From Hippopus hippopus (lineage: Eukaryota; Mollusca; Bivalvia; Cardiida; Cardiidae): 64,000 bases of DNA. Under the pieces are notes generated by a model, which saw only the letters and a program-made list of their open reading frames with translations, had not been told where the DNA came from and ran no database searches. The stretch spans positions 67,150,714 through 67,214,713 of the forward strand of contig OX328099.1 in the NCBI GenBank assembly GCA_946811185.2. Reading direction: 5' to 3'. Made by a program: the position numbers and the translations under genes. Of the stretch, positions 38,150-54,696 are shown piece by piece. Each line of letters opens with the position of its first letter. Position 1 is the stretch's first letter.

Positions 38150-38373
38150 TGATTGATTGAACGATCGATTGTATGGTGTTTAATGCCGTTTCAACATTAT
38201 TTAAGTTGTATCGCGGCGGCCGGTGCACCTATCCATGCTTTCCTGGAGTTTCTTTTACCAGTTTCTTTTACTCCCCACAATATTCTTTTCAAGCAACTGG
38301 CTGCTTTCCCATATAACCGCCTTCGATCAGCAGTGAGAGAGGAATGAATTCTGTCACAATGACTATCATCAAT
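38150..38373 (-). repeat. S1 SINE, left part (split by the Polinton)
   Basis: Reversed SINE from tail (GTATGGTGTTTAATGCCG) into the body as far as GACTATCATCAAT. The rest continues at 55919 after the 17.5-kb insertion. Confidence 0.9.
38368..38373. repeat. Left target-site duplication ATCAAT
   Basis: ATCAAT here and again at 55913-55918. Six-bp duplications are characteristic of Maverick/Polinton integration. Confidence 0.9.
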
Positions 38374-38774
38374 AGTAGTAATTATGGCACTATGCAGGTC
38401 AAATTGCCTGCGGCACTATAGGGGCCAGGCCTTTGTCTTTGACAGTTCAGACTATTGTTAGAGGCCTTTGTCTGTTGGAGGTCAGACTGTCTGTGGCAAT
38501 ATGACGTAATCTTGCATACCTTTTGTCTGGCTTTCGTTGCCTCCCACCTGCCGAGGCTAGATGACAATTCCAAGCGTGTTTTGGCGCGTTTTGACCGATC
38601 AGGCCGGCGCCCGATTGTATAGAACCGAAAATTCAGCCAAAGCATTCGCCATTGAAAATGCATGAGAACTTTCTCTCAAAGAGGTTGCTCTACTAAAAAT
38701 GCTTTTGTCTGTGAACGCTTTTACCCCCCTTACCATTCAAAGTCTAGGTTTTGTATTGACTTTAATGAATAAAA

Positions 38775-39030
38775 TCGTATGGTGTTTAACGCCGTTTTCA
38801 ACATTTTTGTTGCACTTAAGTCGCTGCGGCCAGTGCACCTATACATGCTTTCCAGCAGTATCTTTTACCAGGGCATCATTTTCTTTCCAAGTCACTGACT
38901 GCTGTCTCACATAACCATTATTACGGTCAGCTGTGGTAGAGAAATAAATGGTTTCACAATTTTCAGTCCTCGACCTAGCCAGGGATCGAAGCCACGACCC
39001 ATCTCAAGTCCTGCACGCTAGCTATTTAAG
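38775..39030 (-). repeat. S1-type SINE carried inside the left TIR
   Basis: GTATGGTGTTTAACGCCGTT (tail) through GGGATCGAAGCC (B-box complement) to CCTGCACGCTAGC. The same copy, with the same truncated head, lies in the right TIR. Confidence 0.85.
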
Positions 39031-39260
39031 AGCTCAGCTTTTAGGTCCTCGCTTCTACATGGAAAAGTTTGCGAAAAACTTACTACGATCCCCAAATAGC
39101 GGTGGCATAATATAAAATTCCCTGTTGGTTTGATCATTAGCTTTCTTAGAAATTCTGATTTTTTTTTTTTTTATAATTCATGAGACCTTTCGATACTCTC
39201 CTGACAGAGTCGCATATCAAAATGATTTAATGTTTGAGAAATGTCGACACTCTTCCACGT

Positions 39261-39437
39261 GATGTCTGGCGCGATTGTATAATATCGTCTGCAAAAATTC
39301 AGACAAAGCATTCGCCTCTCATTAAAAATGCATGAGAAAATGTCGATATTCTTACAAAATAGGTCGCTTTCCGCTGATTAAAATGCGTGATGTCTGGCGC
39401 GATTGTATAATATCGTCTGCAAAAATTCAGACAAAGC
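39261..39437. repeat. 128-bp subterminal repeat, left (about 1.4 units)
   Basis: GATGTCTGGCGCGATTGTAT at 39261 and again at 39389. Each unit holds GGCGCGATTGTATAATATCG. A TATA-like TATAAT about 150 bp before the first gene could act as its promoter (inference). Confidence 0.85.
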
Positions 39438-39558
39438 GAATAATCAATTGGTCAGATGGAAAAAACAAACTGACCAATCAGAAGAGACTTTGTGACTATA
39501 TTAGAAAGCTGAATTTCGTGTTTGGAGTCATAAGAGTTTTGACACTCGAATCAGCAAC

Positions 39559-40044
39559 ATGGTTAGATGTAAATTTAGTCTCGGTAACGAACGCTACGTA
39601 CAGGTCAGTGAATGGAGGGGTGAACTGAGAGTCGATATCAGGGAATGGCAGGAAGACATACCTACTAAGAAAGGCATTAGTCTTACGCTTATGAGATGGA
39701 AGAATTTGGTAGATGCCTCTGAGTTTGTTGATCAAGCATTACACGGTAAAAAAGCATACAGCGCTCACCTAGGAGGAAACGTTTATTGCAGTATCGGTGA
39801 AAACAGCGTTTGTGTAGATATAAGACAGTATTGGAAACCAGACAATGAAGTGGTACCGACCAAAAAGGGTATCTGCTTAAGACCCGCTGAATATAACTCT
39901 CTTAAAAAACACGTGTCAGAGATTGGTAGGAATCTACCCGAGTTGGACGCTGTCATTCCCTGTTACCTTCAAAGTGATCATATGAACCAGTTAGGGGCGT
40001 TGCGGTGTTCTGAATGTAACCCTAACGATAACGGAAACTGGTAA
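39559..40044 (+). CDS. Tandem PC4-like ssDNA-binding protein
   Basis: 161 residues containing two copies of a PC4 (p15/SUB1) type fold. Repeat 1 covers about residues 6-60, with RYVQVSEWRGELRVDIREW and PTKKGISL. Repeat 2 covers about 70-125, with VYCSIGENSVCVDIRQYW and PTKKGICL. The hallmark is the β-strand run, D-I-R-x-(Y/W) and then the K-K-G-I-x-L turn before an α-helix. Host PC4 binds ssDNA and acts as a cofactor at RNA polymerase II promoters. PC4-like proteins can also protect ssDNA during replication. Two fused domains in one chain would form an intramolecular dimer (inference). First gene inside the left TIR, transcribed inward. It ends with a Cys-containing tail (RCSECNPN). I know no host family with this exact arrangement. 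Confidence 0.75.
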   Translation: MVRCKFSLGNERYVQVSEWRGELRVDIREWQEDIPTKKGISLTLMRWKNLVDASEFVDQALHGKKAYSAHLGGNVYCSIGENSVCVDIRQYWKPDNEVVPTKKGICLRPAEYNSLKKHVSEIGRNLPELDAVIPCYLQSDHMNQLGALRCSECNPNDNGNW

Positions 40045-40086
40045 ATAGGCGCGATTGACAGAATTAACATCACATTAATAAGCACC

Positions 40087-40476
40087 ATGTTCAAAGATTC
40101 TACAAAAGTGACTGCATATTCGAAGCCAGCCTTGATGTTATGTGAAGATAGACTACAAACGTATGAGCACTGGTCGAAGCAAATAAAGCCTGAGAAATGG
40201 TCATTAGCAAAAGCGGGCTTCTTTTACACCGGTACTGCGGATAAAGTGACGTGTTTTGCCTGTGGTGTCAACATAATGTCATGGGAGGAAAAGGACGATC
40301 CTTGGGAAGAGCACGAGAAATGGTCTCCGTCCTGTATATATTTGAAAATGACGGGATACACGAGTCAAATCACTTCAAGGTGTGATACACAACGAAACGC
40401 GTCTGTTACCAATGGAAGATTGTCCCGTGACGGTTCTACATATAACTGGAGTGCTTTGAATTCAGCCTTTTTCTAA
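40087..40476 (+). CDS. BIR-domain (IAP-like) protein
   Basis: 129 residues with one BIR domain at about residues 19-87. RLQTYEHW opens the domain, then the zinc ligands follow in the exact BIR spacing C-x2-C-x16-H-x6-C (CFAC..H..C, about residues 56-82). The W-x5-A-x-AGF-type segment (WSLAKAGFFYTG) is also present. BIR domains of inhibitor-of-apoptosis proteins bind caspases or IAP antagonists. Here there is no RING or second BIR, as in small virus-borne IAPs. An anti-apoptotic role during element replication is an inference. It could instead be a survivin-like mitotic protein, but it lacks survivin's long C-terminal helix. It follows the PC4 gene by 42 bp. A GGCGCGATTG motif shared with the TIR repeat lies about 38 bp upstream of the ATG. 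Confidence 0.85.
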   Translation: MFKDSTKVTAYSKPALMLCEDRLQTYEHWSKQIKPEKWSLAKAGFFYTGTADKVTCFACGVNIMSWEEKDDPWEEHEKWSPSCIYLKMTGYTSQITSRCDTQRNASVTNGRLSRDGSTYNWSALNSAFF

Positions 40477-40489
40477 AACCGATGTGAAC

Positions 40490-40654
40490 ATGTTCGGACT
40501 CATTCTTATATTTGTGACAACAATGAATGACTTCGAATTGTGGTTGAAATACAGACAATTGCGAAGAGACGCCGCGGAGGGTGTTGAAAGGCTCGTTGGC
40601 TTGTATATAGAAAACGAAAGAAACCTCTCTATTTACTATTTCTATTTGATGTAG
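40490..40654 (+). CDS. Small hypothetical protein
   Basis: 54 codons (ATG at 40490, TAG at 40652) between the BIR and integrase genes. The N-terminus is hydrophobic (FGLILIFVTT) and the rest is charged and probably helical. No family recognised. Its placement and lack of overlap with neighbours make it plausible, but it may be non-coding. Confidence 0.3.
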   Translation: MFGLILIFVTTMNDFELWLKYRQLRRDAAEGVERLVGLYIENERNLSIYYFYLM

Positions 40655-40688
40655 TAAGAATGTATGGATGTCTATGTAATAAATAAAC

Positions 40689-41801
40689 ATGTCTGACTGG
40701 CAACAGTATTTGTCTTCTTTGTATTTTGACTTAAAATCTCCCGCTAGCTATGGTGGTCCTGAAAAACTCTATCAACATGTTAAAGACGAGGGTAAATACA
40801 AAATTGGCAGGCACAGAATACGCCAATGGTTGCAGAATCAAGAAGCGTATTCTCTGACCAGGGGTGCTAGACGCCGCTTTAAACGTTCCAGGGTGATTGT
40901 AAATGGCATCGACAGTCAATGGGACATGGATCTTATGGACATGGCCAATTTACAGAAGCATAACGAAGGTGTGAAATACATTTTGATTGTTATCGATGTA
41001 TTTTCTCGTTTTCTTTATGCTCAACCTGTTAAGAGTAAGCGAGGCGCTGATGTAGTCATGGCATTGAAACGTATACTGACAGGCCCCAAAAAGCCAAACA
41101 CAATTCGTACGGACAGAGGAATGGAATTTAGAAGTAAAGAAGTAAATAAATATTTAAATAGTCAAAGTATACATCATATGTACGCATATAATACGGAAAC
41201 AAAAGCAAATTACGCGGAAAGAGTTATTAAAACGCTAAAACACAAGATTTTTCGATACCTGCTCAAAAACAGAACTAGTAGATACATTGACATTTTACAG
41301 GATTTTGTACATAGTTACAATCACACTCACCACAGGAGTCTTGGAGAAAACCCAGCAGCAATTTCCGTGAAAAATGAAGGGGAAAGTCGTCTTCAACAGT
41401 ATCTCATTAGAACCAAAGGAAGCAAAGGGGAAAAGCCCGTTATAAAAAAATTCAAATATAAAATCGGCCAGACTGTACGATTGTCACACATCAGGTCCGT
41501 ATTTGACAGAGAATACTCGCAAAAATGGACAGGGGAGATTTTCAAAATCAGATCACGTTTCAAAAGACAAGGACTTCCAATTTACACGTTAGTAGACTGG
41601 GACAACGATGAAATTGATGGTACATTTTACGAACAAGAATTACAAGCCATAAACGTTGACGACGGTACCGACTTTAGCATCGAAAAAATTTTGAAAAGAA
41701 GGACACGCAATAAGAAACAGGAAGTCCTGGTGCGCTGGTTACACTGGCCAAAAAAGTATGACAGCTGGATACCGGAAACTGATATTAAGCAATACTCGTA
41801 A
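40689..41801 (+). CDS. Polinton integrase (DDE, RVE type) with chromodomain
   Basis: 370 residues. The N-terminus (about 20-65) has a basic helix-turn-helix-like region rather than the HHCC zinc finger of retroviruses. The RVE core (about 72-230) carries the catalytic triad D81 (WDMDLMD), D142 (RTDRGMEF) and E177 (YAERVIK). An SH3-like region follows at about 255-320, and a C-terminal chromodomain at about 328-368 (IEKILKRR..VLVRWLHWPKKYDSWIPE). Polinton integrases join the element's ends to host DNA with a 6-bp stagger, which matches the ATCAAT duplication. The chromodomain may direct insertion to particular chromatin. The frame is complete with the catalytic residues intact, so it could still be active. 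Confidence 0.96.
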   Translation: MSDWQQYLSSLYFDLKSPASYGGPEKLYQHVKDEGKYKIGRHRIRQWLQNQEAYSLTRGARRRFKRSRVIVNGIDSQWDMDLMDMANLQKHNEGVKYILIVIDVFSRFLYAQPVKSKRGADVVMALKRILTGPKKPNTIRTDRGMEFRSKEVNKYLNSQSIHHMYAYNTETKANYAERVIKTLKHKIFRYLLKNRTSRYIDILQDFVHSYNHTHHRSLGENPAAISVKNEGESRLQQYLIRTKGSKGEKPVIKKFKYKIGQTVRLSHIRSVFDREYSQKWTGEIFKIRSRFKRQGLPIYTLVDWDNDEIDGTFYEQELQAINVDDGTDFSIEKILKRRTRNKKQEVLVRWLHWPKKYDSWIPETDIKQYS

Positions 41802-41812
41802 ACAACCGAGAA

Positions 41813-41820
41813 TATAAAAA
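41813..41820 (+). promoter_or_regulatory. TATA box before the TBP gene
   Basis: TATAAAAA followed by GAGG, 18-25 bp before the ATG at 41838. This spacing would leave almost no 5' leader. It probably drives the TBP-to-capsid block. Confidence 0.5.
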
Positions 41821-41837
41821 GAGGCTGAAAACTAGCA

Positions 41838-42401
41838 ATGTTCTATCATTTATGTCTAGACAGTCAAACGATCATGATCATCACAAACGTGCTTTACAGC
41901 GCTCAACTCAACTGTCCTATTGATTTAAGACAACTCTGCTCCAAAATAACGAATGTACGGTATGATCCAGCACGATTTCCCGGACTGATATGGCAACACA
42001 GAAAAGCTGGAGGAAACTGTTTAGTGTTTTCTAACGGTATTATCAACTGTAACGGCAAAGTTTCGAGTAAAAGAGAGGGGTACGAACGAATACGGAAATA
42101 TGCGAGACTGATACAGAATTGTGGATATCCAGTGAATTTATCGGACGTGAAACTTTTAACCATGTCTATGAGCCATACCCTCAGTTCGGATTTGGATTTG
42201 AAGCGTTTGTCTGTCGATAAAGATGTCGTATACGAACCCCAGTTATTTCCTTCTCTTAACTTTAAAAGGGAAGGGGTGCATTTTTGTTGTTTTCATACAG
42301 GGAAAGTGGTCATAACGGGTGTAACCTCTTCACAAAAAGAGGACGAGATTGTTTGTCCCACACTAATTGAACTCGAACTCTATACGCGTAAGAAGGAATG
42401 A
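41838..42401 (+). CDS. TATA-binding protein homologue
   Basis: 187 residues that follow the TBP core through two saddle repeats. Repeat 1 (about residues 13-97) has ITNVLYSAQLNCPIDLRQLC, then YDPARFPGLIWQHR, CLVFSNGIINCNG and RKYARLIQNCGYP. Repeat 2 (about 105-187) has YEPQLFPSLNFKREG and CCFHTGKVVITG. The four phenylalanines that TBP wedges into the TATA box have clear counterparts: F47, F64, F137 and F152. Family role: binds TATA DNA, bends it and nucleates the transcription pre-initiation complex. In an element whose genes carry TATA boxes it may favour element promoters or replace host TBP (inference). It lacks TBP's variable N-terminal region. Repeat 2 is divergent at its C-terminal helix. 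The stop overlaps the next start (ATGA). Its own TATA box lies just upstream. Confidence 0.85.
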   Translation: MFYHLCLDSQTIMIITNVLYSAQLNCPIDLRQLCSKITNVRYDPARFPGLIWQHRKAGGNCLVFSNGIINCNGKVSSKREGYERIRKYARLIQNCGYPVNLSDVKLLTMSMSHTLSSDLDLKRLSVDKDVVYEPQLFPSLNFKREGVHFCCFHTGKVVITGVTSSQKEDEIVCPTLIELELYTRKKE

Positions 42402-42769
42402 GTATTTTAACCGATTCAATCATGGAACACTCTACAGTCTATTTACAAATCGCTTATTTACTTCACCTACAAGAGACCGAAACAACGGTAAGGAAGAATT
42501 TACTGCAGAATTTAACGAATCGTCAACTAAAGGCTATCATCGAGGTGGCAAAACGTATACTTAATGGAGTCATTAATCCAATGAGAAGAGATGTTCAAGT
42601 TTTTGAAAGAAGGAGACTATTGTTACGCACACTATGCTCAAATAACGTTTCATCAACCCGTAAGAAGACTTTACTTCGACGATTTCATTCATTTATACCC
42701 ATTTTATTACGCCCAGTTTATCTCATTCCTACTATACTAGACCAATTGAGAACAAGGAGAGAAGAATGA
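42398..42769 (+). CDS. Small helical basic protein, copy 1
   Basis: 123 residues, mostly α-helical by composition, ending strongly basic. The segment VRKNLLQNLTNRQLKAIIEVAKRIL followed by a basic RRRLLLRTL-type block aligns with the minus-strand protein at 45107-45430 (RKALLKTITRQQLRALSQIA), so the two are paralogues. Related small proteins are common in animal Polintons. A virion core or DNA-condensing role is plausible but unproven. ATGA overlaps connect it with the genes on both sides. Confidence 0.75.
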   Translation: MSILTDSIMEHSTVYLQIAYLLHLQETETTVRKNLLQNLTNRQLKAIIEVAKRILNGVINPMRRDVQVFERRRLLLRTLCSNNVSSTRKKTLLRRFHSFIPILLRPVYLIPTILDQLRTRREE

Positions 42770-43191
42770 CAGAGTTTTACTTGTATTTAAATTCCGCAGA
42801 ATCTATCGATATACGTAAGAATAACGCAGATTTCTTGTTCCAGTTTTCTAAGGACTATATTTTAGAAGGAAGTTGGTTATGTGCTCTGGTAGAATCGTCA
42901 TTGACCTGCGACTTTACACCTCAAAGTAAGCGGTTGTATTTGAATTGTGACATTATAGAGGAAACGTTTGTCAGGAATAAGTTACAACCCGTTCTCACCA
43001 ATATAGAAATCGAAACAAGATAAAAGAAATTTAAATTTACGGAATGTCTTCATCGACGTTATAGACCCGTGAGTGTCAAGAAATTTAACACTATTAGGCT
43101 GTCGTTAAAAGGCGAAGATTTAAAACCGATTGATTTGAATTCGAACGATTTTCACTGTGTCCTTCATTTCAAGAAATCATGGGTTCCATAG
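42766..43191 (+). pseudogene. Minor capsid (penton-like) candidate with in-frame stop
   Basis: The frame runs 85 codons from the ATG at 42766 to TAA at 43021-43023. It then stays open in the same frame for another 55 codons to TAG at 43189, giving about 140 codons. The N-terminal part (FYLYLNSAESIDI, WLCALVESSL) and the part after the stop (KKFNTIRLSL, DFHCVLHFKK) both look like β-strands of the single-jelly-roll protein that accompanies Polinton major capsid genes. The likeliest explanation is a nonsense mutation; programmed readthrough is less likely. No frameshift is involved. The start overlaps the previous stop (ATGA) and the end overlaps the next gene by 13 bp. Confidence 0.7.
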
Positions 43192-43523
43192 ACGTCTTTG
43201 ATTCAAAACTACAGAAGTGGGTTCCGTACAAAGAAGATGTGGAGTATTGGATTGATTATTTTAAACCGAAAGACCACATCCCAGATCAAATAAGGAATTT
43301 GGAGAAAATACTAGAAGAAAAGAATAAACTGCTGCGAGATATGGAAGAAAAACTTGAAAAAGTCAAAACTCCTCAGGTAAAAATGGTGAGCCCATTAGCC
43401 GAAGTAGTTGATAGGGCAAAATCTCAAATAAAACGTAAGAACGGTGTTGACGAAGATCGTAAGAATATCAAGCGTAAGAAGACTCACAAAACGTATCGCA
43501 AAGATCCCGACTGGGCGTTTTGA
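43179..43523 (+). CDS. Coiled-coil basic protein, possible virion component
   Basis: 114 residues: an aromatic N-terminus (WVPYKEDVEYWIDYF), a coiled coil at about residues 40-67 (leucine/lysine/glutamate heptads), then MVSPLAEVVDRAKSQIKRK and a very basic tail (about 85-110). The SP-x-A-x-x-x-D-x-A-K motif recurs in small Polinton proteins next to capsid genes (from memory). A role like adenovirus cement or core proteins is an inference. Stop is 9 bp before the capsid gene. Confidence 0.65.
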   Translation: MGSIDVFDSKLQKWVPYKEDVEYWIDYFKPKDHIPDQIRNLEKILEEKNKLLRDMEEKLEKVKTPQVKMVSPLAEVVDRAKSQIKRKNGVDEDRKNIKRKKTHKTYRKDPDWAF

Positions 43524-43532
43524 AAAATTAGC

Positions 43533-44795
43533 ATGAATAGTAAAATTCAGCACAGTGAAGAATTATCGTTATTTAATCCGATCCCAAAAGATTCGTCCTT
43601 GTTATCGAAAGATTGGATCGAATTCCGACCCATTAATCCGGTAACCGATTCTTCATCGAGCTTGGAATTTAATATACCGCCACAGGCCAGCGCCTACATC
43701 AACTTGAAGGAATGTAAATTGAGGGTGAAATTGAGACTCGCTTTACAAGACGGTACACCCGTGTCAGAAGATGATACGCTGGGACTTATCAATTTACCTT
43801 TGCACACCATTTTCAGACAGCTGGACATTCATTTACAACAAAAACCACTCCCGAATAGCGGAACCACGCATCCGTATAAGACCTACATTGACACCTTATT
43901 AAATACCAATCAATCTATACAGGAAGCTTTTCTGACCAGTCAATTATTCTACAAGGATTATCGGAATCTGGACGATAGCGACCCCAAAACTGGATCAAAT
44001 ACCGGTTTATTCCAAAGATATGAAAAGACCAAGGGTGGTAAAATTATAGATCTGGAAGGAAGTATCCCGATGGACTTGTTTCAACAACCCAAGTTGCTTA
44101 TTAACGGAGTGCAAATGGGGCTTAAATTTTGGCAAGCATCCGATGCCTTTCGAATCATTACAGATGCGTTTACTCCGAATTACAAGGTGCAAATCGTTGA
44201 CGCCCGTTTCAAGCTCTGTATTCAGCGGTTACAGAACGATTTGCTTCTGGCTCACGACAAAATGATTCAGGACACTCCCGCTATGTACCCATATTTCCGC
44301 TCAGAGATAAAAACAACCTCGATAGCGCAAGGACAATATAGTTTTCACGCAGACGATATATTTCAAGGTAGGGTGCCAAACAAAATCATCATAGGGACGG
44401 TTGCGAGCGTTTCATATAACGGAGACTACAAAACAAACCCATTCAACCTGAAACATTACGACTGCAGTTACCTCGGTTTCTTCGTTGATGGCCAATCCGT
44501 ACCATCGCAACCTTTGCAACCTAATTTTGAAGGAAATCATTTCACCGACTGTTATCAGACCCTCACTTCCTGTAGAAATGATATCAACATCACATACAAA
44601 GAGTACAAGCAAGGATACTGCCTATATGTGCTGGATATCGATCCCTACTATTCTTTCAACACAAAAAGAAGAGGTCTTTGCCGTTTGGAAATCAAATTTG
44701 CTAAACCTTTACCAGAGAGTGTGACATTGTTGCTGTACGCTACCTTTCCAGAAATACTTACAATCGATAAAGCGAGAAATGTGTATATACAATAA
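43533..44795 (+). CDS. Major capsid protein (double jelly-roll, hexon-like)
   Basis: 420 residues. The N-terminal portion shows the conserved block of animal Polinton capsid proteins: LEFNIPPQASAYINL at about residue 49, then INLPLHTIFRQLDIHLQQK and YKTYIDTLLN. The middle has LEGSIPMDLFQQPKLLINGV followed by KFWQASDAF. Family: two vertical jelly rolls per chain forming pseudo-hexameric trimers that tile an icosahedral shell. The frame is intact with no premature stop. The AATAAA overlapping the stop codon could serve as its poly(A) signal. Confidence 0.93.
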   Translation: MNSKIQHSEELSLFNPIPKDSSLLSKDWIEFRPINPVTDSSSSLEFNIPPQASAYINLKECKLRVKLRLALQDGTPVSEDDTLGLINLPLHTIFRQLDIHLQQKPLPNSGTTHPYKTYIDTLLNTNQSIQEAFLTSQLFYKDYRNLDDSDPKTGSNTGLFQRYEKTKGGKIIDLEGSIPMDLFQQPKLLINGVQMGLKFWQASDAFRIITDAFTPNYKVQIVDARFKLCIQRLQNDLLLAHDKMIQDTPAMYPYFRSEIKTTSIAQGQYSFHADDIFQGRVPNKIIIGTVASVSYNGDYKTNPFNLKHYDCSYLGFFVDGQSVPSQPLQPNFEGNHFTDCYQTLTSCRNDINITYKEYKQGYCLYVLDIDPYYSFNTKRRGLCRLEIKFAKPLPESVTLLLYATFPEILTIDKARNVYIQ

Positions 44796-44918
44796 ATACG
44801 GAGGGAAATAATAAAAAAAAAAAACCACACACACACAATGACTCATGCCTTCTTTTATACTTTTATTGTATTATTCTGTTAATAAAAATATAAAATCATG
44901 AAATTGTCGAGTCGTTAT
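44793..44918. terminator. Convergent polyadenylation region
   Basis: Plus-strand AATAAA overlaps the capsid stop (CAATAAATACGG) and another AATAA lies at 44808. On the minus strand AATAAAAG (complement of ACTTTTATTG at about 44860) and TTTTTATT signals lie just beyond the last minus-strand gene. The 120-bp interval between convergent genes also has A11 and (CA)n runs. Confidence 0.6.
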
Positions 44919-45107
44919 TCAATAAGAAATCCAGTCTATATCTTTCTTTCGTTTCTTCTCTCTAAGTCCCGGAGGAAATAGTGTTAATTTCTTATTCTTC
45001 TTTTTCGAGGTATCTTCCCTTTCCTCTCTCTGCTGATCATCTTGTCTCCCAGATAGTTTTTTCAATCGCTCAAACTTTTCGAAAGGCACTAATACATATT
45101 TCTCCAT
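44919..45107 (-). CDS. Small basic protein
   Basis: 62 residues: MEKYVLVPFEKFERLKKL, then a lysine/arginine-rich middle and tail. The opening M-E-K-(Y/F)-V-L-V-P is, from memory, common to small Polinton proteins near the ATPase. The function is unknown, perhaps nucleic-acid binding. The ATG overlaps the previous gene's stop (TAATG). Confidence 0.6.
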   Translation of the reverse strand: MEKYVLVPFEKFERLKKLSGRQDDQQREEREDTSKKKNKKLTLFPPGLREKKRKKDIDWISY

Positions 45108-45430
45108 TACTGTAATACGGGTTGTAAGTAGGCTGAAGCAATCTTCACCAATGTATGGATAATACGTTGTTTATGTTGGATAGCTTCCTTCTTTTTAACA
45201 AACCCCGTGTTACGATCTCCAAGCAAGTAAATAAAGCGTCTCTGCCTCTTTAAGGTGGCTTTTTCCGTAAGTGTCAATCTACCTTTGAACCGCATAATGT
45301 TGTACGCAATTTGACTAAGCGCCCTTAGCTGTTGACGGGTAATAGTTTTTAAAAGCGCTTTTCTCTGGTCGGCTGTAGTGTTGGCCACTAAATATAAAAA
45401 GTGACGTTGCTGTTTAATTAGTTCTACCAT
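45107..45430 (-). CDS. Small helical basic protein, copy 2
   Basis: 107 residues, paralogous to the plus-strand protein at 42398. Shared features are R-K-x-L-L-x-x-(I/L)-T-x-(R/Q)-Q-L-(K/R)-A, a central R-R-x-x-x-L-L block and a terminal L-x-P-V. Isoelectric character is strongly basic. It lies between the ATPase (32 bp upstream) and the small basic protein (overlapping TAATG). Confidence 0.75.
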   Translation of the reverse strand: MVELIKQQRHFLYLVANTTADQRKALLKTITRQQLRALSQIAYNIMRFKGRLTLTEKATLKRQRRFIYLLGDRNTGFVKKKEAIQHKQRIIHTLVKIASAYLQPVLQ

Positions 45431-45462
45431 ATTGTATTCTTATAAGCTATTTATTTCCATTC

Positions 45463-46116
45463 TTACGTCAAACGGTACACAATAGGATCTTCGTTGGGAA
45501 ATATACGAGTCCTTAAACGGTACTTGTCGTCGGAGTAAGGGGACATGTCCACTATGAAATAACCGTGTCTCGTATTAAGGGCATCTTCGTAAGCCTTCAT
45601 AAACACTCCGGATTTACCGGGATAAAGCTGCCGTCCTAGCACTCCTACTTGAGATATGTCACGAATATTTTTCATAAGCACCAGATACCATGTATTCAAA
45701 GCTATAGTTCTGGCATGTTTACCCCCAGGGTATAAGTTTTGTGTGATCATAATCACCGATACTTTTCTGTGATGGCAGCCTTGGGTGAACAGTAACTCCA
45801 TTTCTTTACTCCGCATGACCTCGTGCATTAGGTCGTCTAAAATGATTAACTTGTGTTTTTTGTCTCTTGTGAAGTCATCCAATTCTTCTGCAGTAGGTAG
45901 TCCTTGCTTACTGTCAAAGTTTGGAATGGAACTCTCCATGACATCAAACAAGTCTTGGTGGATACCGTAGCAATAGAGAATATGAGAAGGGGGGTCCCGT
46001 CCGTACATGAGGTTTACTTGTTTCAAAAAGCGGTACACCCATTGGGTTTTACCACTACCAGTTTGTCCGCTAATACACATACTAGAACATGGTTCGAATG
46101 GAAGAGGGACGGCCAT
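45463..46116 (-). CDS. DNA-packaging ATPase (FtsK/HerA-like)
   Basis: 217 residues. Walker A is GQTGSGKT (17-24) and Walker B LIILDD (90-95). A sensor-like ITQN lies at 124-127, followed by the conserved LNTWYLVLMKN and QLYPGKSGVFM regions of viral packaging ATPases. It should power DNA entry into the capsid. The length is typical of Polinton and adenovirus-like ATPases and no lesion is visible. The start codon overlaps the upstream gene's stop (TAATG). Confidence 0.94.
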   Translation of the reverse strand: MAVPLPFEPCSSMCISGQTGSGKTQWVYRFLKQVNLMYGRDPPSHILYCYGIHQDLFDVMESSIPNFDSKQGLPTAEELDDFTRDKKHKLIILDDLMHEVMRSKEMELLFTQGCHHRKVSVIMITQNLYPGGKHARTIALNTWYLVLMKNIRDISQVGVLGRQLYPGKSGVFMKAYEDALNTRHGYFIVDMSPYSDDKYRLRTRIFPNEDPIVYRLT

Positions 46117-46376
46117 TATTTTTTAAGTCTAGGGTTAGGCAAAGCGTACCCGATACTGCTACTCAAGAGTGATACCCAAAGCTCGGTCGACCCGTTTTGC
46201 ACTGATAGGTTAATGATGGACGTAATAATAATGATGTACACTATGATCATCTGACAAAAGTAGACAATCTCTGCTTGGGGGACACGGGTGCCCAGTAAAT
46301 GCCACTTGTCACTATGGCTTTCTTCGTCAGGTTTAGGGAAACGTAAAAACGTTTCTTTTTCGGGAGTTTCTGTCAT
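46116..46376 (-). CDS. Small membrane protein
   Basis: 86 residues: a polar head (1-35) with KWHLLGTRVPQAE, one clear transmembrane segment at about 36-57 (IVYFCQMIIVYIIIITSIIN) and a second hydrophobic stretch ending SSSIGYALPNPRL. From memory, proteins with this I-G-Y-x-L-P-N-P ending sit beside the ATPase in many animal Polintons. It may be a virion membrane or exit factor (inference). First gene of the minus-strand packaging block. Confidence 0.7.
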   Translation of the reverse strand: MTETPEKETFLRFPKPDEESHSDKWHLLGTRVPQAEIVYFCQMIIVYIIIITSIINLSVQNGSTELWVSLLSSSIGYALPNPRLKK

Positions 46377-46431
46377 ATTCTTACATTAGATTAACTCAAA
46401 ACACAAAAAGAAACTCATTCTTACAATTTTT

Positions 46432-46439
46432 TATTTATA
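46432..46439 (-). promoter_or_regulatory. TATA box for the ATPase block
   Basis: Minus strand TATAAATA, a full consensus match, about 60 bp upstream of the membrane-protein ATG at 46376. It would drive membrane protein, ATPase, helical protein and small basic protein as one unit. Confidence 0.5.
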
Positions 46440-46491
46440 AGCAATACAATTATCACGTTAACAAATAAAATAAACAACAGTTGGTATCTAG

Positions 46492-46698
46492 AAAAATAAG
46501 CGACACTTTTAAGAAAATGAGTGACACTTTTTTGAAAATGAGTGACACTTTTAGGAAAATGAGTGACACTTTTTGAAACAGACCCTATGGGAATTTACCT
46601 GTAAAAGTATAAAAACGTAAAAACGAGTGACACTTTTTGAAAAATGAGTGACACTTTTTGAAAAATGACTAACACCTTTTTTTGAAAAATGATTGACA
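46492..46698. repeat. Iterated GAGTGACACTTTTT motif
   Basis: At least six copies of (A)AATGAGTGACACTTTTT(G) or close variants occur at about 46498, 46518, 46539, 46560, 46625 and 46645, with two weaker ones after. Spacing is about 20-21 bp within each of two clusters. They occupy the gap between the polymerase stop and the ATPase-block promoter. Confidence 0.8.
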
Positions 46699-46733
46699 TT
46701 GAACAACCCACGAACAAAAAAAAAAAAATTACA

Positions 46734-49700
46734 TCAGTCATATCCATATGGTACAGTGTCATAATTGTCTAGTTTCCTTCGCTTTGTATACACCAATTGA
46801 TAACTTTTCTTTTCTTCTCTATTATACAATTTCCTCTTTCTTTTGTCTCTACATATTTTACATGGGTTGGTTACAACAATATTTGAACTACTTTTTGAAT
46901 CTGTTACTATAGCTTTCACGGCTTCAAAATTGATTAGTTTGCTATTAGTGTAGTTCAAAGTAAACCCTCTGACCTTACATGTTTCCTCGTTGGTACTGGT
47001 CTTATATGCGTAATTCTTTGGACCTCCTGACACAAATTCTACAATATGCTCTCCTTGCTCCAGTTCATCCGTCAACTCACCCAAGTAGTCCCCTAAGGGA
47101 GGATCAAACTCTCCGGGTCTACTCACGTAAATGACAGAGTCCGTGTCGTAGTACAACACTCTTTTATTCAACTTTTCGAGCACACTGTACAATTTTAATC
47201 GGGCCCAACATGTTGTAAAGGTCGCCAAGTAAATGTTTGTTTCGTTGTCTTCGGGGTGAAAGTCATGTTTATAAATCCACTCTATTTGTATCATATCATT
47301 TGAGAGTATATGAAAGTTCAGAGGCTCTTTTGTAGGATCAGAAAATACTTGAAAAAATAAGTTTGCTTGACTCTCGTGATATATTTTGGTTTGACGCATA
47401 TTGAGTCTCTGTCCAAACTTACCCCAAAAGCTATTGAGACAAAGTTTGGCCAGAGCTCTTTTGCCAGGGTTTTTTACAATGCTGTTTTGATCCAGCAATA
47501 CACCCTCTTTTTTATGATAATCTTCCATGTATTTTGTCATGTCTTGTTTCGTTTTGACCCAATCAGGAGGGCCACTCGCCTCTTGCTTAAATTTCAAAAA
47601 CGTGTTGATATACTTGGCGAATAACCCCCCATCACCCGTCTCAGGATTATACTGTGTTGTTTCCTCCCAGTGGTATACTTCATATATTTTTTCTAGTGTG
47701 TAACCCAGTCTTAGAGCCGTTTTTATCTCGGGGATGCACCACGTGCCAATTAAAACCCTGTCTTCAGAAGAACATGTACATGAATCTTGATTCTCGGTAT
47801 CCGCACAGGTACGACATAGAGGAAATTTCAGTTTGCCATTTGATCTATAGGGGAGGACTGGATGATACAGCCCTCTCGGGGGTAATGTCTTTATTTTGGC
47901 AATACCAAAATACTCCTCAAGCTTCCCGAAGTCTTTGGTCAAGATTTTGGGGTGACCTACGGGATACCGACACTACTTGTTCACCCAAGGGTACAAACTT
48001 GTAAAGTCTACGTATTTGACCTGTTCATGTTCTTTGGTTTTGTAATAGAGTTGACTGGCATTAGTGCGCCCTCCGAAGAAACTCTCTCTTGGATCTAATC
48101 GGTCAGCTACATCTAATTGTGCAATGCATTCTTTGAGTTCTTCATTTTCGTCCTTTAATTTTTTGAAGTCATGGTCCCAAATACACACATACTTCATGCC
48201 TAATTGCTCGAGGTATGCTTTCTTTTTTAGAGTCAGAGCATACAATTCATTCAGTGATTGATTGGTGAGGGGGTGATACGTGTCCTCTCGTTTGTCTGGG
48301 AAACACACAGGGCATCCGTGAAACACACATCCGTGGTACTCGTATGCTGTGTGTGTTTCTTCACAATATCCATCTAATTTGTATCGTGTTCCTGGTATCT
48401 TTTTTTCACCTTCATTCAGTGCATGCTGAATGTGTACATGGTCTGTAAGCGCTCGCCACTCTAACCACTGAATTGACACCTTACTGTATTGTTCTTTGTA
48501 TCCACTGGGAGGAATCTTTGCTATCGGGGTGCTTACAAATTCTTTACCCTTGACTTTCAATTTTGCTGCACTCACCCATTCATCTTTCACCAGTACATAC
48601 AATACTCCCTCACATAGTTTGGCTGGGATCCATTCATCAGTGTCATACAATTGTACCTTCCACTTTTCTTCTAGAAATTTACTTCTAAACACATTCATGC
48701 ATACTGATGCAATCGTAACACTGTCGAAAGGATCTACGGCCCCAAACCACCTTTTTTCAGTCTTTCCCTTTCCATTTATGACCTCTTTTTCTTCTCCCGT
48801 TGCATTCATTAACAAATATCTAAATTTCAAACATGCTTGTCTCAATATATCAACATCACTTCTACAATATTCTAACATCTCTTTTCTAAAATCAAAAACT
48901 TCACACTATCTCTGTTTCAACCACTCTTCTAACTCGCTTCTTTCTTTCTCACCCATGAAATCGTAACCATAATCTTTAGCATCAGGGTAGGGCCCAACAT
49001 AATTTTGATTCTCTCTGGTATTAAAATAATGTGGGAACCACCCTTTTTTCAATTCATGTAAACCAAATGCTTTGGGTAATGCTGACAGTTTCATGGGTAA
49101 GAAGTTAAGACTGTCTATTACCTTGATATGTAAGTCTCGCTCTACTGTCATGTACATTATCTTGGACCCGTTGTAAATAATTTTGTCTGGCCGTAATGAC
49201 TGATCAACGAGGTACTCTAGCAGAAAGTAACCGTCATAACCTTTCATGTTATGAGCAACCACCTTGCAGTACTCGTGTTGTTCCGTAAATAACCATTGCC
49301 CAAACTGTTCAGCAGTATCATGTCCCTGGAAAGTGACTTCTCTAAAGCCACATGTCCCTGGACAAGGTCCCAAATCTTTCTCATCCAGATTTTTTTGACA
49401 TTTTTTACAACGGCTACCGCATCTCTTACATACTGATTTGGCAGTCAATTCATTGTCAATACATTTTGGGCATACCGAATGAGCTAAGACAAAGTTGGGA
49501 CGATGCGTAGTTCTACCGCACCATGACGTGTTGCAGTTTTTACACTTAGAACAAGACTTACATACCTGTGATGGTTGACAATCTGCGCATTCTATTTTCT
49601 TTTGCGGTATGTATCCATTCTCGCACTCACTCATATCATCCTGACTACACTCAAAATCAAAAAATATATATTTAGGTATAAACTTGTCCTTACATTCTTT

Positions 49701-51509
49701 CGCTCTTAAATAACACTGATGATCGTCCAACACATACTTTTTACAAGTCTTACAAAAGTATTCCCCACACACATGGTCCTCCTTCTTCCTTATGTCCGTC
49801 CTTAGTACCTTGTAACACCTGAAACACCTCCACCACTTTTCACACTGGGAAGGCCCACTGGGTTGACCTTTTCTCCTTCCATTTTTGTGTAAGGGTACTT
49901 TCTTGTGTTGTTTGTAACAATCATCTGACCTACAGTCCATGTTACAATCTGTGCACCTCAGAGTCTTGTTCGTTTTAGGGCAGTGGTCCCTCTTGCACAC
50001 TATACATTTTTCTGCACACTGGTGATATTCCCTATTACTATAGTGTTTGAGACATTTTTCACAAAAATAGGAGTCGCTAAAAAACCCAGTGATGTTTGTT
50101 ATGGCATGAAAGTGGTCGTCGTCCACCAAGTACACGTAGATACAGGGACGCCCGTCACTGCTAGGACCAGTAATAAATTTATTGCCTAGGCGAGCGCTGA
50201 TGACCATCACGCGTACTCCTAGGATTTCCTCAAATGCCTCCACATCGTTGAGACTAGCTGTTCGGTCTATGGGTACGCCTGCCATCTTACACAGAGCCCT
50301 TGCCAGCTGTCCTTGGTGTTTCTTCTTCTTTTTGACAAGGTCGTTATAGTAAGACAAGGGGACTTTTTGATATTCTAAAACCAACTCCAAGCTACTTTTT
50401 CCCTGTCTGTTTTTCGTTACCTCCTCCCATTCTTCCTTGGTACACCTCTTTAATTTTGCCCAGCTGACTCCAATGGCCCTTGCCATACACATTTTATCTT
50501 CATTCTCAATAGTCACTACCGAGCGTTTTAAATCCAATGAAGTGTTTTCACCTTTAATACGCATGATATGTTTTCGCTTGCCTCCTTTAGGTAGGTCAAT
50601 GGTCCCTATTATTATATCAAAGGTCTCATCGATCGAAAGTTCCTGGTTACTATTGAGTACCTTTTCGAGGATCTCCATAACTCTATTAGCGTCAAGGGTA
50701 TCCCACTTCTGTAAAGGGACGACAACAGGGTTGTGCAAAGCATCGTGATATATCACGACACGACCTAGATCATTCCCCTGTAGGTGTCCTCGGGCCTCGT
50801 TAAGGGCTGCCTGGATCATGTCATGAAGTCCCTGCCTCACGTCTATTAACCGCTGACCATTGTACCGCTCATCCAATTTTACTTGATATGTTGTATCTAT
50901 TGCTGCATTTTTGGCATATGTGCGGGTGTCCTTCTTTCTCATTGTGTATTTCAGTTTGTTGTCGTTCTGTAGACCGGAGGGTCCCGCCCGTGGCTCTTCC
51001 CCTTCCCCTGTCTGAACAAATGGATCGTCCCAATCACCATCTTCCAAACACAACCTTGCTGTCTCGTTCATATCGTCATCAAAAAGATCGTTCTGTAGAC
51101 CGGAGGGTCCCGCCCGTGGCTCTTCCCCTCCCCCTGTCTGAACAAATGGATCGTCCCAATCACCATCTTCCAAACACAACCTTGCTGTCTCGTTCATATC
51201 GTCATCAAAAAGAAGGGCTTTGACAGCTCCATCAATTTCCTCCTGTATTTGTACATACTCTAGCGATACGACCATGTCCTCCTCGTTAAAAGTAACCGGA
51301 GTCTGGATACGTCCACCTAGGGTTTGCAGCACCAAGTCCATTTGTTCTTCGATAAACTCATTATCATATTCCTGTTGTCTCAGCTGGAAAAGTCTAAGTC
51401 TTACAGACACGGAATCCTGGATCCCCATGGTCGTTGCAAAGTCCATAAGCTCATCCGGATCCGTATAAGAGTTTATCATAACGTCCATTATTTCAGCCAC
51501 AGCGTCCAT
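46734..51509 (-). pseudogene. Protein-primed family-B DNA polymerase, two amber codons
   Basis: One frame of 1591 codons from the ATG at 51509 to TGA at 46734, broken only by TAG at 48908-48906 (codon 868) and TAG at 47975-47973 (codon 1179). The N-terminal region (about 1-470) includes an acidic duplicated stretch. Two cysteine-rich zinc clusters lie at about 480-600 and 640-720. Exonuclease motifs: FFDFE (D618, E620), HNMKGYD (754-759) and YCRSD (881-885). Polymerase motif A is DFTSLYP (from 1168), motif B KLCLNSFWG (about 1355) and motif C YYDTDS (about 1454-1458). The first amber falls between exonuclease motifs II and III; the second lies just after motif A. Every catalytic motif survives, so decay is recent or the stops are read through. 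Family role: replication primed by a terminal protein at the TIR ends. Confidence 0.93.
50962..51213. repeat. 126-bp in-frame tandem duplication inside polymerase
   Basis: Two adjacent 126-bp units (50962-51087, 51088-51213), nearly identical, encode a repeated 42-residue acidic module (LFDDDMNETARLCLEDGDWD..). One base differs visibly (GGTGGGGG versus GGTGAGGG sense), so the duplication is recent. Confidence 0.95.
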
Positions 51510-51561
51510 GTTGCTCGATTGAAATCTGAAAACAGAATAGGTATGTTACCGAGTGTGTCTT

Positions 51562-51569
51562 CTTATATA
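51562..51569 (-). promoter_or_regulatory. TATA box of the polymerase gene
   Basis: Minus strand GTATATAAGA, about 55 bp upstream of the ATG at 51509. A start site 30 bp downstream would leave a leader of about 20-25 nt. Confidence 0.55.
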
Positions 51570-51632
51570 CTCTCCATTAGCCTCGTTTTGAGAAAGAGCT
51601 ATTTTTAGATATACTAATTTAATACAGGCATA

Positions 51633-52915
51633 CAATATATGAAATCGGGGTAAAAGGCACCCGCTGAATTCATTTCTTTAGTCAGAAAATGGATTTTATC
51701 GTGTTTTAAGTGAAATTTACTTTCGAATTTGATCATAGATGATAAGAACAGCCTCAATGACATTTTATCTAACAAGTTATCTCCAATACCTTCATACCTA
51801 ATTTGAAAATTTTTATTTCTTGATTTAAAATGAAATATAGCGACAGTAGTATGTAATGTAATATATGAAATCGGGGTAAAAGACATCCGCTGAAGTCATT
51901 TCTGTAGTCAGAAAATGGATTTTGTCGTGTTTTAAACGAAATTTACTTTCGAATTTGATCATAGATGATAAGAACAGGCTCAATGACATTTTATCTAACA
52001 AGTGATCTCCAATACCTTTATACCTAATTTGAAAATTTTTATTTCTTGATTTAAAATGAAATATAGCGACAGCAGTATGTAATGTAATATATGGAATCGG
52101 GGTAAAAGGCACCCGCTGAAGTCATTTCTGTAGTCAGAAAATGGATTTTGTCGTGTTTTAAACGAAATTCACTTTCGAATTTGATCATAGATGATAAGAA
52201 CAGGCTCAATGACATTTTATCTGACAAGTGATCTCCAATACCTTTATACTTAATTTGAAAATTTTTATTTCTTGATTTAAAATGAAATATAGCGACAGCA
52301 GTATGTAATGTAATATATGGAATCGGGGTAAAAGAAATCAGCTGAAGTCATTTCTGTAGTCAGAAAATGGATTTTGTCGTGTTTTAAACGAAATTTACTT
52401 TCGAATTTGATCATAGATGATAAGAACAGGCTCAATGACATTTTATCTGACAAGTGATCTCCAATACCTTTATACCTAATTTGAATTTTTTTATTTCTTG
52501 ATTTAAAATGAAATATAGCGACAGCAGTATGTAATGTAATATATGAAATCGGGGTAAAAGACACCCGCTGAAGTCATTTCTGTAGTCAGAAAATGGATTT
52601 TGTCGTGTTTTAAACGAAATTCACTTTCGAATTTGATCATAGATGATAAGAACAGGCTCAATGACATTTTATCTGACAAGTGATCTCTAATACCTTTATA
52701 CCTAATTTTTTTTTTCTTAATTTAAAATGACATACAGCAACACTTGTATGGAATGCAATATATGAAATCGGGGTAAAAGGCATCCGCTAAAGTCATTTCT
52801 TTGGTCAAAAAATGGATGTTTTTCTCGCTTTTTAAACGAAATTCATGTTAGAATTTGATCATAGATGATAAGAACATGCTCAATGACATTTTATCTGACA
52901 AATTATCTCATATAG
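51633..52915. repeat. 226-bp satellite array, about six units
   Basis: Units starting GAAATCGGGGTAAAA (or GGAATCGGGG) lie at 51641, 51867, 52093, 52319, 52545 and 52764. The first four steps are exactly 226 bp and the fifth is 219. Inner units are 95% or more alike; the outer two are more diverged, as expected for unequal exchange. The period is not a multiple of three. The overlapping 95-codon minus-strand ORFs are therefore a by-product, not a protein array. Confidence 0.95.
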
Positions 52916-53247
52916 AGATAAAAGTTGAAAATCGACGTTCGGCGTAAATTCAAAAAGATTTTATCACTCAAAACTTGATTGCAATTTGTAACATTAGGTA
53001 AACAATTGTTACAAATTAGACTTACACGTTCATATATATGCAAAAATTAAAAGCCAGGTGTTTTTCTGCAGATGTTTTAAATTTTTCAAAACGGAAAAGT
53101 CACTTTAGATTTAATATCAAACAGTGTCTGGTTGCACAAAAGTAGCACATTGTTAAATCGAGGATTTCGAAAAGAAAAATTGACGAAGTTTGTTTCAGCA
53201 TATTTATTTCAATTTTGGGCACCTCTTCTTTTTACTGAAACTGAAGG
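52916..53247. other. AT-rich leader between satellite and zincin gene
   Basis: About 330 bp. A weak CATATTTATTTC lies about 50 bp before the zincin ATG. No other feature is seen. Confidence 0.4.
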
Positions 53248-53886: not shown

Positions 53887-54285
53887 TTCAAGTGTAGGTC
53901 AAAATGTGAAATTGTGTTAATACATGTATGTATGTAAAAAGAAAATCCTGTAATTCGCTAAAATAGTGTTTATGTGTGTTTGTGTGGGTGTGTGTCGGGA
54001 AAACTGTGTATATGTTTTTATATTGTAAAAAGGAATAGATTACAACGCTTTAAAGGTAGGTCGATTCATATTTTACTATCATATTTACTGCAGATTTTCA
54101 TTGTGCACATTGAGAACCTTTCTTCTTTTCCCCCTGTACGCTTTCATTTTCTCCCCGTTCCGGTTAAATTTTCAGTCTTTTACCTCACTACCGTAAAAAC
54201 CAGGGTTTGTATGGTAACGAGTTATAAGCGTTTACAAACAAGTGAAGTAAAACGGACTTACCTTTCTATAATCGAGGTTCCAACA
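53887..54285. other. Non-coding interval near the right end
   Basis: Contains a (TG)n-like stretch at about 53968-53998. CCGTAAAAACCAGGGTTTGTATGGTAACGAGTTA (two pieces, about 54190-54224) may be a faint family A end. The 129-codon plus-strand ORF at 53974-54363 has no supporting feature. Confidence 0.35.
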
Positions 54286-54630: not shown

Positions 54631-54644
54631 CTACAAAACGTTTG

Positions 54645-54656
54645 CCTTTTATATAG
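54645..54656 (-). promoter_or_regulatory. TATA box facing inward from right TIR
   Basis: Minus strand CTATATAAAAGG, the best TATA consensus in the element, just inside the right TIR boundary at 54697. Confidence 0.55.
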
Positions 54657-54696
54657 TTAACAGACAAAAGCGTTTGATAAAGTGTTTATAAATTCC

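What the first reader, a model, noticed from the sequence alone, without database searches (positions are those of the whole stretch)
41838..42401. A TATA-binding protein homologue encoded by a Polinton
The product follows the TBP core through both saddle repeats and keeps counterparts of all four DNA-kinking phenylalanines (F47, F64, F137, F152). TBP homologues are known in some large DNA viruses, but I do not recall one as a standard Polinton gene. Its position between integrase and capsid genes, with stop/start overlap to the next gene, shows it belongs to the element and is not a host exon.
Basis: partly seen in the sequence, partly recalled or inferred. Interest (0 to 1): 0.9.

Follow-up and report, generated by a model that had tools for sequence, protein, structure and literature searches.

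The report
Polinton carrying its own TATA-binding protein
A virus-like mobile element (a Polinton), whose TBP gene is matched at 150 or more places in one animal genome, carries its own gene for a TATA-binding protein, the protein cells use to mark where transcription starts, plus a second transcription-factor gene (PC4), and it likely uses them to steer the host's transcription machinery to its own genes.

The parts
38374..55912 (.). Polinton element, 17,539 bp, ends AGTAGT...ACTACT
38374..39437 (+). left terminal inverted repeat, 1,064 bp
   Evidence: matches the right one except for two single-base differences in homopolymer length
54849..55912 (-). right terminal inverted repeat, 1,064 bp
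38368..38373 (.). target site duplication ATCAAT (left)
   Evidence: read
55913..55918 (.). target site duplication ATCAAT (right)
   Evidence: read
41874..42401 (+).
41838..41873 (+).
41813..41820 (+). TATA box (TATAAAAA), 61 bp upstream of the conserved TBP start
39559..40044 (+). PC4/p15 transcriptional coactivator gene, 161 aa, two PC4 stretches
   Evidence: PF02229 E=2.7e-27; PDB PC4 E=1.5e-8
40087..40476 (+). BIR (IAP) domain gene
   Evidence: PF00653 E=8.7e-25
40689..41801 (+). RVE integrase with C-terminal chromodomain
   Evidence: PF00665 E=5.6e-14, PF00385 E=3.2e-9
42398..42769 (+). gene X, function unknown, overlaps the TBP stop
42766..43179 (+). putative minor capsid gene (by position and relatives, fold not tested); in-frame stop in this copy, open copies exist
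43179..43523 (+). 114-aa ORF, function unknown
43533..44795 (+). double-jelly-roll major capsid protein
   Evidence: AF2 pLDDT 90; Foldseek to iridovirus, Sputnik, mavirus and PBCV-1 capsid proteins, best E=8e-15
45107..45430 (-). gene Y, 107 aa, unknown
45463..46116 (-). A32-like packaging ATPase
   Evidence: PF04665 E=1.5e-6, 28.3 bits vs cut-off 22.8
46119..46376 (-). p90, small ORF shared with the L035 family
46734..51509 (-). family B DNA polymerase region, three ORFs in this copy
   Evidence: PF03175 in each of the three
51562..51569 (-). TATA box (TATATAAG), -60 of the polB ATG
40654..40660 (+). GTAAGAA word, -35 of the integrase ATG
42388..42394 (+). GTAAGAA word, -10 of the gene X ATG
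42660..42666 (+). GTAAGAA word inside gene X, -106 of the minor capsid ATG
43435..43480 (+). three GTAAGAA words, -98, -74 and -59 of the capsid ATG (inside the 43179 ORF)
45460..45466 (-). GTAAGAA word, -36 of the gene Y ATG
46378..46424 (-). two GTAAGAA words, -48 and -8 of the p90 ATG at 46376
   Evidence: one search counted from 46367; re-read by hand

Best explanation
The ORF is a TATA-binding-protein gene of a Polinton, and its product likely bends and marks the element's own promoters and would recruit host TFIIA, TFIIB and RNA polymerase II to them, probably helped by the PC4 coactivator gene that the same element carries. Shown by sequence or prediction: the two-repeat TBP fold (high-confidence model), its place in the element, presence of both TBP and PC4 in two distant Polinton families, purifying selection on the protein, retention of the kinking phenylalanines and of most TFIIA/TFIIB-contact positions, and replacement of base-reading residues. 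Inferred: DNA binding, recruitment of host factors, and use on the element's own genes. The more specific reading, that it serves a late box GTAAGAA on virion genes while TATA boxes serve early genes, is given in the section on the most novel reading.
Against: No binding or expression data. TATA[AT]A is not enriched ahead of element genes as a set (3 of 11, expected 1.64, p=0.20; second family 2 of 12, expected 1.36, p=0.42). L034 and L040 have CATTTAAG instead of a TATA box at the TBP gene, and L035 and L033 show none. The base-reading changes could mean weak or lost sequence-specific binding. F284 is replaced in 9 of 63 relatives and F301 in 6 of 63. The TBP frame is broken in 4 of the 13 fetched copies: L031, L032 and L033 are split between frames and L034 has an internal stop. 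All dN/dS values come from integrated copies in one genome.
Confidence: 0.62

Rival explanations
1. The protein acts on the host: it is a decoy or competitor of cellular TBP that sequesters TFIIA/TFIIB or blocks host promoters, shutting host transcription down while the element replicates.
For: TFIIA/TFIIB-contact positions are mostly kept while base-reading residues are changed, as a sequestering decoy would need; the element also carries a BIR/IAP gene.
Against: All four kinking phenylalanines are kept in the window protein and in most relatives, which a pure decoy would not need; PC4 travels with it; a TATA box stands ahead of TBP and of polB.
Confidence: 0.15
2. It handles DNA rather than promoters: a TBP-fold minor-groove bender used in replication initiation, packaging or target-site choice of the element.
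Against: Conservation of eukaryote-type TFIIA and TFIIB contact positions (Y in 63/63, E/D in 62/63) and the presence of PC4 have no reason under this reading.
Confidence: 0.1
3. It is a recently captured or domesticated host gene: a host TBP paralogue that happens to lie in the element.
For: NCBI names a close relative 'TATA-box-binding protein-like 1' of Mercenaria (P0040).
Against: One uninterrupted frame, 33% identical to human TBP in the aligned core, while the host TBP is 89% identical and in at least four exon pieces; 22 of 22 Polinton rows form one clade apart from 4 of 4 eukaryotic TBPs, 100/100; 150 scored matches, 76 with identical protein.
Confidence: 0.03
4. Rival for the late word only: GTAAGAA is a 5' splice site rather than a promoter word, and late genes are expressed from spliced transcripts.
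For: GTAAG matches the donor consensus (recalled); virion ORFs overlap, which suits shared transcripts.
Against: Other donor words are less common on the same strands: GTAAGT 2 and 0, GTGAGT 5 and 2, against GTAAGAA 10 and 9; the word sits at -32 to -36 of the ATG of INT and Y in the window and of X, minor and Y in the second family.
Confidence: 0.3

Closest known systems
Cellular eukaryotic TBP (TFIID subunit, PF00352)
   Same: Two-repeat saddle, all four kinking Phe, most TFIIA/TFIIB-contact positions, size of the core
   Different: 33% identity to human TBP over the aligned core, no N-terminal domain, one uninterrupted frame, base-reading positions V216, T218, N253, V255 and L299 changed
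Beta/gamma-herpesvirus TBP mimic (KSHV ORF24, EBV BcRF1, HCMV UL87)
   Same: Virus-coded TBP-like factor working with host Pol II; late promoters carry a modified box, TATTWAA (PMC7498053 abstract, PMC6541308 passages)
   Different: The herpes protein has an N-terminal domain that binds the Pol II CTD and works in a six-protein complex; here the protein is the bare TBP core, beside a PC4 gene
Mirusvirus and giant-virus TBPs
   Same: TBP gene in large DNA viruses: 59% of mirusvirus genomes, though 0% of Nucleocytoviricota in the same gene-cluster comparison (PMC10132985 passages); TBP in a megavirus and in CpV-BQ1 (PMC11464507, PMC12085832 passages); structural matches among viral proteins
   Different: Best viral structural match (an unnamed record) TM 0.76 and 22% identity, against 0.86 for cellular TBP; no giant-virus or mirusvirus rows were available for the tree
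Polintons/Mavericks and adintoviruses
   Same: TIR, 6-bp TSD, (AGT)2 ends, PolB, RVE integrase with chromodomain, DJR capsid, ATPase
   Different: TATA and TBP do not occur in the main text of four Polinton/Maverick/adintovirus papers searched by word (PMC4028283, PMC8097293, PMC11071308, PMC11071296), nor PC4
TLP/TRF2 (TBPL1)
   Same: Divergent TBP paralogue, the name NCBI gives to P0040
   Different: TLP (letters recalled) has V, W and H at three of the four Phe positions; the Polinton protein keeps all four

Membership tests
TBP superfamily (PF00352) | Two matched TBP repeats above the curated cut-off | tested here: met
   92.1 bits vs 22.9, 2 stretches
TBP superfamily (PF00352) | Saddle fold with both repeats | tested here: met
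   predicted model
TBP superfamily (PF00352) | Two pairs of DNA-kinking phenylalanines | tested here: met
   F47, F64, F137, F152
Cellular general TBP (orthologue) | Base-reading set V216, T218, N253, V255 | tested here: not met
   N70, N72, T108, S110; 80/80 archaeal rows, human, Arabidopsis, clam-host and nematode TBP and recalled yeast TBP keep the standard set
Cellular general TBP (orthologue) | Groups with eukaryotic TBPs in a tree | tested here: not met
   separate clade, 100/100, stem 1.68 changes per column
TBP function | Binds and bends TATA DNA, binds TFIIA and TFIIB | not testable with these tools
   needs binding assays
TLP/TRF2 | Loss of most kinking Phe | tested here: not met
   (human TLP letters recalled)
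Herpesvirus vTBP (ORF24/BcRF1/UL87) | N-terminal Pol II-CTD-binding domain | tested here: not met
   the 175-aa protein is a TBP core only
Polinton/Maverick | Terminal inverted repeats, (AGT)2 ends, 6-bp target duplication | tested here: met
   features as given in PMC8097293 passages
Polinton/Maverick | Protein-primed PolB | tested here: met
   PF03175 (organellar and viral PolB) in three ORFs; priming itself not tested
Polinton/Maverick | RVE integrase | tested here: met
Polinton/Maverick | Double-jelly-roll major capsid protein | tested here: met
   predicted fold
Polinton/Maverick | Packaging ATPase | tested here: met
   PF04665 above cut-off
Polinton/Maverick | Adenovirus-like protease | tested here: inconclusive
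   none found in the window with one query, the putative protease of L035; PRO was identifiable in 74% of Polintons (PMC4028283 passage)
PC4/p15 | PC4 domain | tested here: met

The most novel reading that the evidence does not exclude
A 17.5-kb animal Polinton runs a two-class promoter programme with its own re-specified initiation factors: early genes (polB, TBP or PC4) carry TATA boxes, virion genes carry a late box ([CT]GTAAGAA[TGC]) that shares TAAGAA with the element's own TATATAAGAAG and differs in the 5' half, and the element's TBP, whose base-reading residues have been replaced family-wide by small or polar ones (V216N, T218N, N253T, V255S, L299C/S/N) while the kinking phenylalanines stay, reads that box and with the element's PC4 hands it to host TFIIA/TFIIB/Pol II: a convergent, far smaller counterpart of the herpesvirus TATT system.
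Probability: 0.33. Interest if true: 0.93.

Novelty: new variant of a known kind. Interest (0 to 1): 0.82.

Why it matters
Polintons have been proposed as ancestors of many eukaryotic DNA viruses (abstract of PMC7805220, listed), yet how they control transcription is, as far as I recall, hardly known. An element-coded TBP with a PC4 gene indicates that even a 17-kb element can bring its own core-promoter factors. It makes three questions testable: how Polintons separate early from late genes, how TBP specificity can be rewritten (a natural experiment in a protein otherwise highly conserved across archaea and eukaryotes), and whether virus TBPs (herpes, mirus, giant viruses, Polintons) are separate captures.

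Tried and rejected
Viral-contig scans with the protein, with alignments A1 and A2 (17, 54) and with the capsid alignment A4 (89), phage records (10), and genome contigs with A2 (52) confirmed no relative; so free viral genomes with this TBP were not seen.

A general TATA-box enrichment ahead of element genes was tested and not found. PHROGs has no match for the TBP or capsid protein (68). NCBIfam lists only archaeal-type TBP models below their cut-offs (69). Rfam finds nothing in the element (112). The sigma-70 scan is not applicable to an animal element (111).

The first dN/dS run (48) gave wrong rows where a copy holds an internal stop (the aligner drops the sign): L034 TBP, L039 X and MCP, L040 INT, MCP and ATP, L031 INT and MCP. 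It was redone without that fault (105), and only one search is used. The first divergence run (99) mixed strands; redone. A count on the minor capsid frame used a wrong offset and strand and is void; one search replaces it. The -57/-17 distances of p90 are from the start of an alignment; from the ATG at 46376 they are -48/-8.

The GTAAGAA word was noticed by eye in both families before it was tested, so its p-values are post hoc. By raw count it is only ninth among the 15 listed 7-mers of the window's coding strands (A-rich words lead), and it does not appear among the 15 listed for the second family, where its count of 9 ties with the last. What stands out is the excess over shuffles, the strand bias and the placing. 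One of the 10 window words (42815) lies inside the minor capsid frame and within 120 bp of no start. The element has four more hits outside the counted strands: 49097 (antisense in polB), 54803, and a TIR pair at 39355/54931.

A host TLP search did not complete; the place of TLP in the tree rests on one recalled sequence with a very long branch. A search meant to find TBP-less Polintons as a control for the word (110, 113) returned 97 capsid matches of 42-43% identity, consistent with the families already known; I did not check each for a neighbouring TBP, and that control is missing.

Paper searches listed only part of what matched: 18 of 19, 25 of 358, 15 of 147, 12 of 166, 12 of 116, 20 of 88; 3 of 3. 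PMC4602308 (listed) was not opened.

Full report

START CODON. Relatives begin at the equivalent of residue 13. Of 11 copies compared at this spot, seven (L034, L036, L037, L038, L040, L042, L044) lack the ATG at 41838, while 11 of 11 keep the one at 41874; L031 and L032 are frameshifted just after it. A TATA box at 41813-41820 would put the transcription start at or after about 41838, so 41874 is the likely start (inference). In L037, L038, L042 and L044 about 340 extra bases lie between integrase and TBP (gap about 380 against about 36), yet a TATATAAGG stands within 2 bp of the same offset. L034 and L040 have CATTTAAG there, and L033 and L035 no TATA box.

THE ELEMENT. TIRs of 1,064 bp match except for two single-base differences in homopolymer length; the ends read AGTAGT and ACTACT, flanked by ATCAAT on both sides, the end motif and 6-bp duplication described for Mavericks (PMC8097293, passages). 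It encodes an integrase with chromodomain, an A32-like ATPase, a BIR protein, PolB in three ORFs and a capsid protein whose model (pLDDT 90) matches iridovirus, Sputnik, mavirus and PBCV-1 double-jelly-roll capsids, best E 8e-15. No protease was found in this copy with one query. In the genome (1.07 Gb, unnamed) 150 TBP matches were scored of 217 candidates, 76 of the 150 with identical protein (a lower bound). Thirty identical-protein copies, the window's own among them, differ by a median of 0.14% over the 3.5-kb pieces: a recent burst.

CONTEXT IN OTHER COPIES. I fetched 13 further element regions (plus one host TBP region), chosen for divergence. Gene X and the capsid gene follow TBP in 13 of 13 (only the first 63 capsid residues in L033); the integrase precedes it in 12 of 13 (not in L033). 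A PC4 gene is in the fetched piece of 11 and, for L035, in the adjacent piece L125. The TBP frame itself is broken in four of the 13 (L031, L032, L033, L034). L035 is a separate family (TBP 50%, capsid 57%, integrase 67%, PC4 68% identical to the window's), with at least three copies in this genome. Elsewhere, TBP and capsid relatives share the same source and contig length in nine cases (4308, 4455, 6138, 6227, 9321, 9776, 13318, 3825 and 3585465 bases), two of them with close locus tags in MAGs of clam symbionts (ABW072_02025/02035; N0E59_22775/22760), most likely animal or viral DNA binned with the bacterium (inference).

SELECTION. dN/dS of TBP against eight copies is 0.18-0.27, like integrase (0.12-0.32 in the six measurable) and capsid (0.10-0.34 in the seven measurable).

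PHYLOGENY. In a 42-row tree, 22 of 22 Polinton rows form one clade (100/100) on a stem of 1.68 changes per column, apart from 4 eukaryotic TBPs, 15 archaeal ones and one TLP. One origin is therefore likely and a recent host capture unlikely; the host's own TBP is in at least four exon pieces and 89% identical to human. Yeast TBP and human TLP letters in that tree are recalled. Giant-virus and mirusvirus TBPs could not be fetched and are missing, so a viral source is open.

RESIDUES. Residue roles are recalled from the TBP literature; columns are. Kinking Phe: F193 63/63, F210 63/63, F284 54/63, F301 57/63; the window protein has all four. TFIIA contact Y233: Y in 63/63, V/I/L in 80/80 archaea; K232 is K or R in 43/63. 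TFIIB contacts: E280 is E in 53/63, E282 in 58/63 plus 4 D (the window has Q), L283 is L in 44 and I in 14 (archaea Q in 80/80). Base-reading: N163 kept in 62/63 (one gap); V165 is V, I or L in 62; V216 is N, Q or H in 58/63; T218 is kept in 2/63; N253 is T or S in 63/63; V255 is S, T or A in 63/63; L299 is C, S or N in 59/63; T309 is kept in 61/63. The 80 archaeal rows, the best 80 of 546 candidates by likeness to human TBP and so a biased sample, keep V216, T218, N253 and V255 without exception. So the bending apparatus and the eukaryotic docking surfaces are largely kept, and part of the reading surface has been rewritten.

SECOND FACTOR. ORF 39559-40044 holds two PC4 stretches (PF02229 E=2.7e-27; PDB PC4 E=1.5e-8). 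PC4 is a Pol II coactivator (abstracts listed). Its synonymous distance to L037 and L039 is far larger than TBP's (2.1 and 2.5 against 0.23 and 0.12), so the left end has probably been exchanged between lineages.

PROMOTER WORDS. TATA[AT]A is not enriched overall, but TATATAAGAAG stands ahead of polB in both families, a TATA box ahead of TBP in the window, and TATATATAAATA ahead of PC4 in L035. On the coding strands GTAAGAA occurs 10 times in the window element (expected 1.85, maximum 7 in 200 shuffles) and 9 times in the L035 family (expected 1.35, maximum 6); on the opposite strand of the same blocks 1 and 0 times. It lies within 120 bp ahead of INT, X, minor, capsid, Y and p90 in the window and of X, minor, the 43179-type gene, capsid, Y and p90 in L035; the exact word is not ahead of PC4, TBP, ATPase or polB in either, nor of BIR (window), INT or PRO (L035), where one-mismatch forms stand ahead of polB, INT and PRO. 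With proteins held constant and codons redrawn, all genes together have 6 against 1.64 expected (p=0.0035) and 3 against 0.82 in L035 (p=0.0375); the TBP-to-43179 block has 6 against 0.63 (p=0.0005) and 3 against 0.42 (p=0.0025). At the end of TBP the word is kept in both families although it encodes R-K in one and contains the stop codon in the other. In nine other copies of the window's kin, 69 of 71 aligned instances of eight words are intact; ahead of integrase it is kept in 8 of 9 (L040 gave no alignment), seven of the eight at 73-77% flank identity, though four of those (L037, L038, L042, L044) are near-copies of one another; the two p90 words lay outside the pieces. Donor words in general are lower: GTAAGT 2 and 0, GTGAGT 5 and 2. 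Against it: some words sit 6-10 bases before or on the ATG, too near for a TATA-like role, several lie in upstream ORFs, the test is post hoc, and there are no RNA data.

MECHANISM. The simplest reading is that the element supplies a promoter-marking factor and a cofactor and borrows TFIIA, TFIIB and Pol II. The herpesvirus system is the functional parallel: its TBP mimic binds the Pol II CTD through an N-terminal domain (PMC7498053, abstract) and late promoters carry TATTWAA about 30 bp above the start (PMC6541308, passages). Here the protein is the bare core, so recruitment would go through TFIIA/TFIIB and perhaps PC4 (inference).

NOVELTY. Three papers in the open-access library hold both 'TATA-binding protein' and 'polinton'; in passages none reports a Polinton TBP. 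Wider searches and searches for PC4 (76, 80) were seen only as partial listings. Word searches of the main text found no TATA or TBP in PMC11071308, PMC11071296, PMC8097293, PMC10294476 and PMC4028283, no TATA in PMC8905726, and no PC4 in PMC11071296, PMC8097293, PMC10294476 and PMC4028283 or, by the count in the listing, PMC11071308. Subscription papers and other preprints were not searched. TBP in larger viruses is known: mirusviruses (59% of genomes, PMC10132985, passages), a megavirus and CpV-BQ1, and structural matches. A Polinton with TBP and PC4 is the new variant.

Noticed in passing
40087-40476: BIR/IAP gene in the window's subfamily (also L031, L032, L041); not found in the fetched pieces of L033-L040, L042 and L044, so it looks like a recent cargo gene.
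   Followed up: partly
42766-43179: Putative minor capsid gene has an in-frame stop in the window copy; of 30 near-identical copies, the window's among them, 27 are open there and 3 are not.
   Followed up: partly
46734-51509: PolB lies in three ORFs in the window copy; whether these are frameshifts or introns was not settled.
   Followed up: no
53248-53886: 212-aa ORF with an HEMGH zincin-like stretch near the right end; no Pfam match at E<=0.01.
   Followed up: no
51614-52620: Repeated minus-strand ORFs of about 95 aa that look like a tandem repeat between polB and the right TIR.
   Followed up: no
39559-40044 vs L037, L039: PC4 synonymous distance (2.1, 2.5) greatly exceeds that of TBP (0.23, 0.12) between the same copies: the left end of the element was probably swapped between lineages.
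   Followed up: partly
L035:186-677 (-): 164-aa ORF in the second family that looks by eye like an adenovirus-type cysteine protease; no counterpart found in the window copy.
   Followed up: partly
P0123, P0130, P0132, P0167, P0209, P0229, P0250: TBP and capsid relatives named as proteins of Sedimenticola and Thiodiazotropha MAGs, most likely clam or Polinton DNA binned with gill symbionts.
   Followed up: no
P0033, P0040: Mercenaria gene models, one called 'TATA-box-binding protein-like 1', are probably Polinton genes annotated as host genes.
   Followed up: no
54696-54900: Extra partial copies of the inner TIR segment 39258-39437 beside the right TIR.
   Followed up: no
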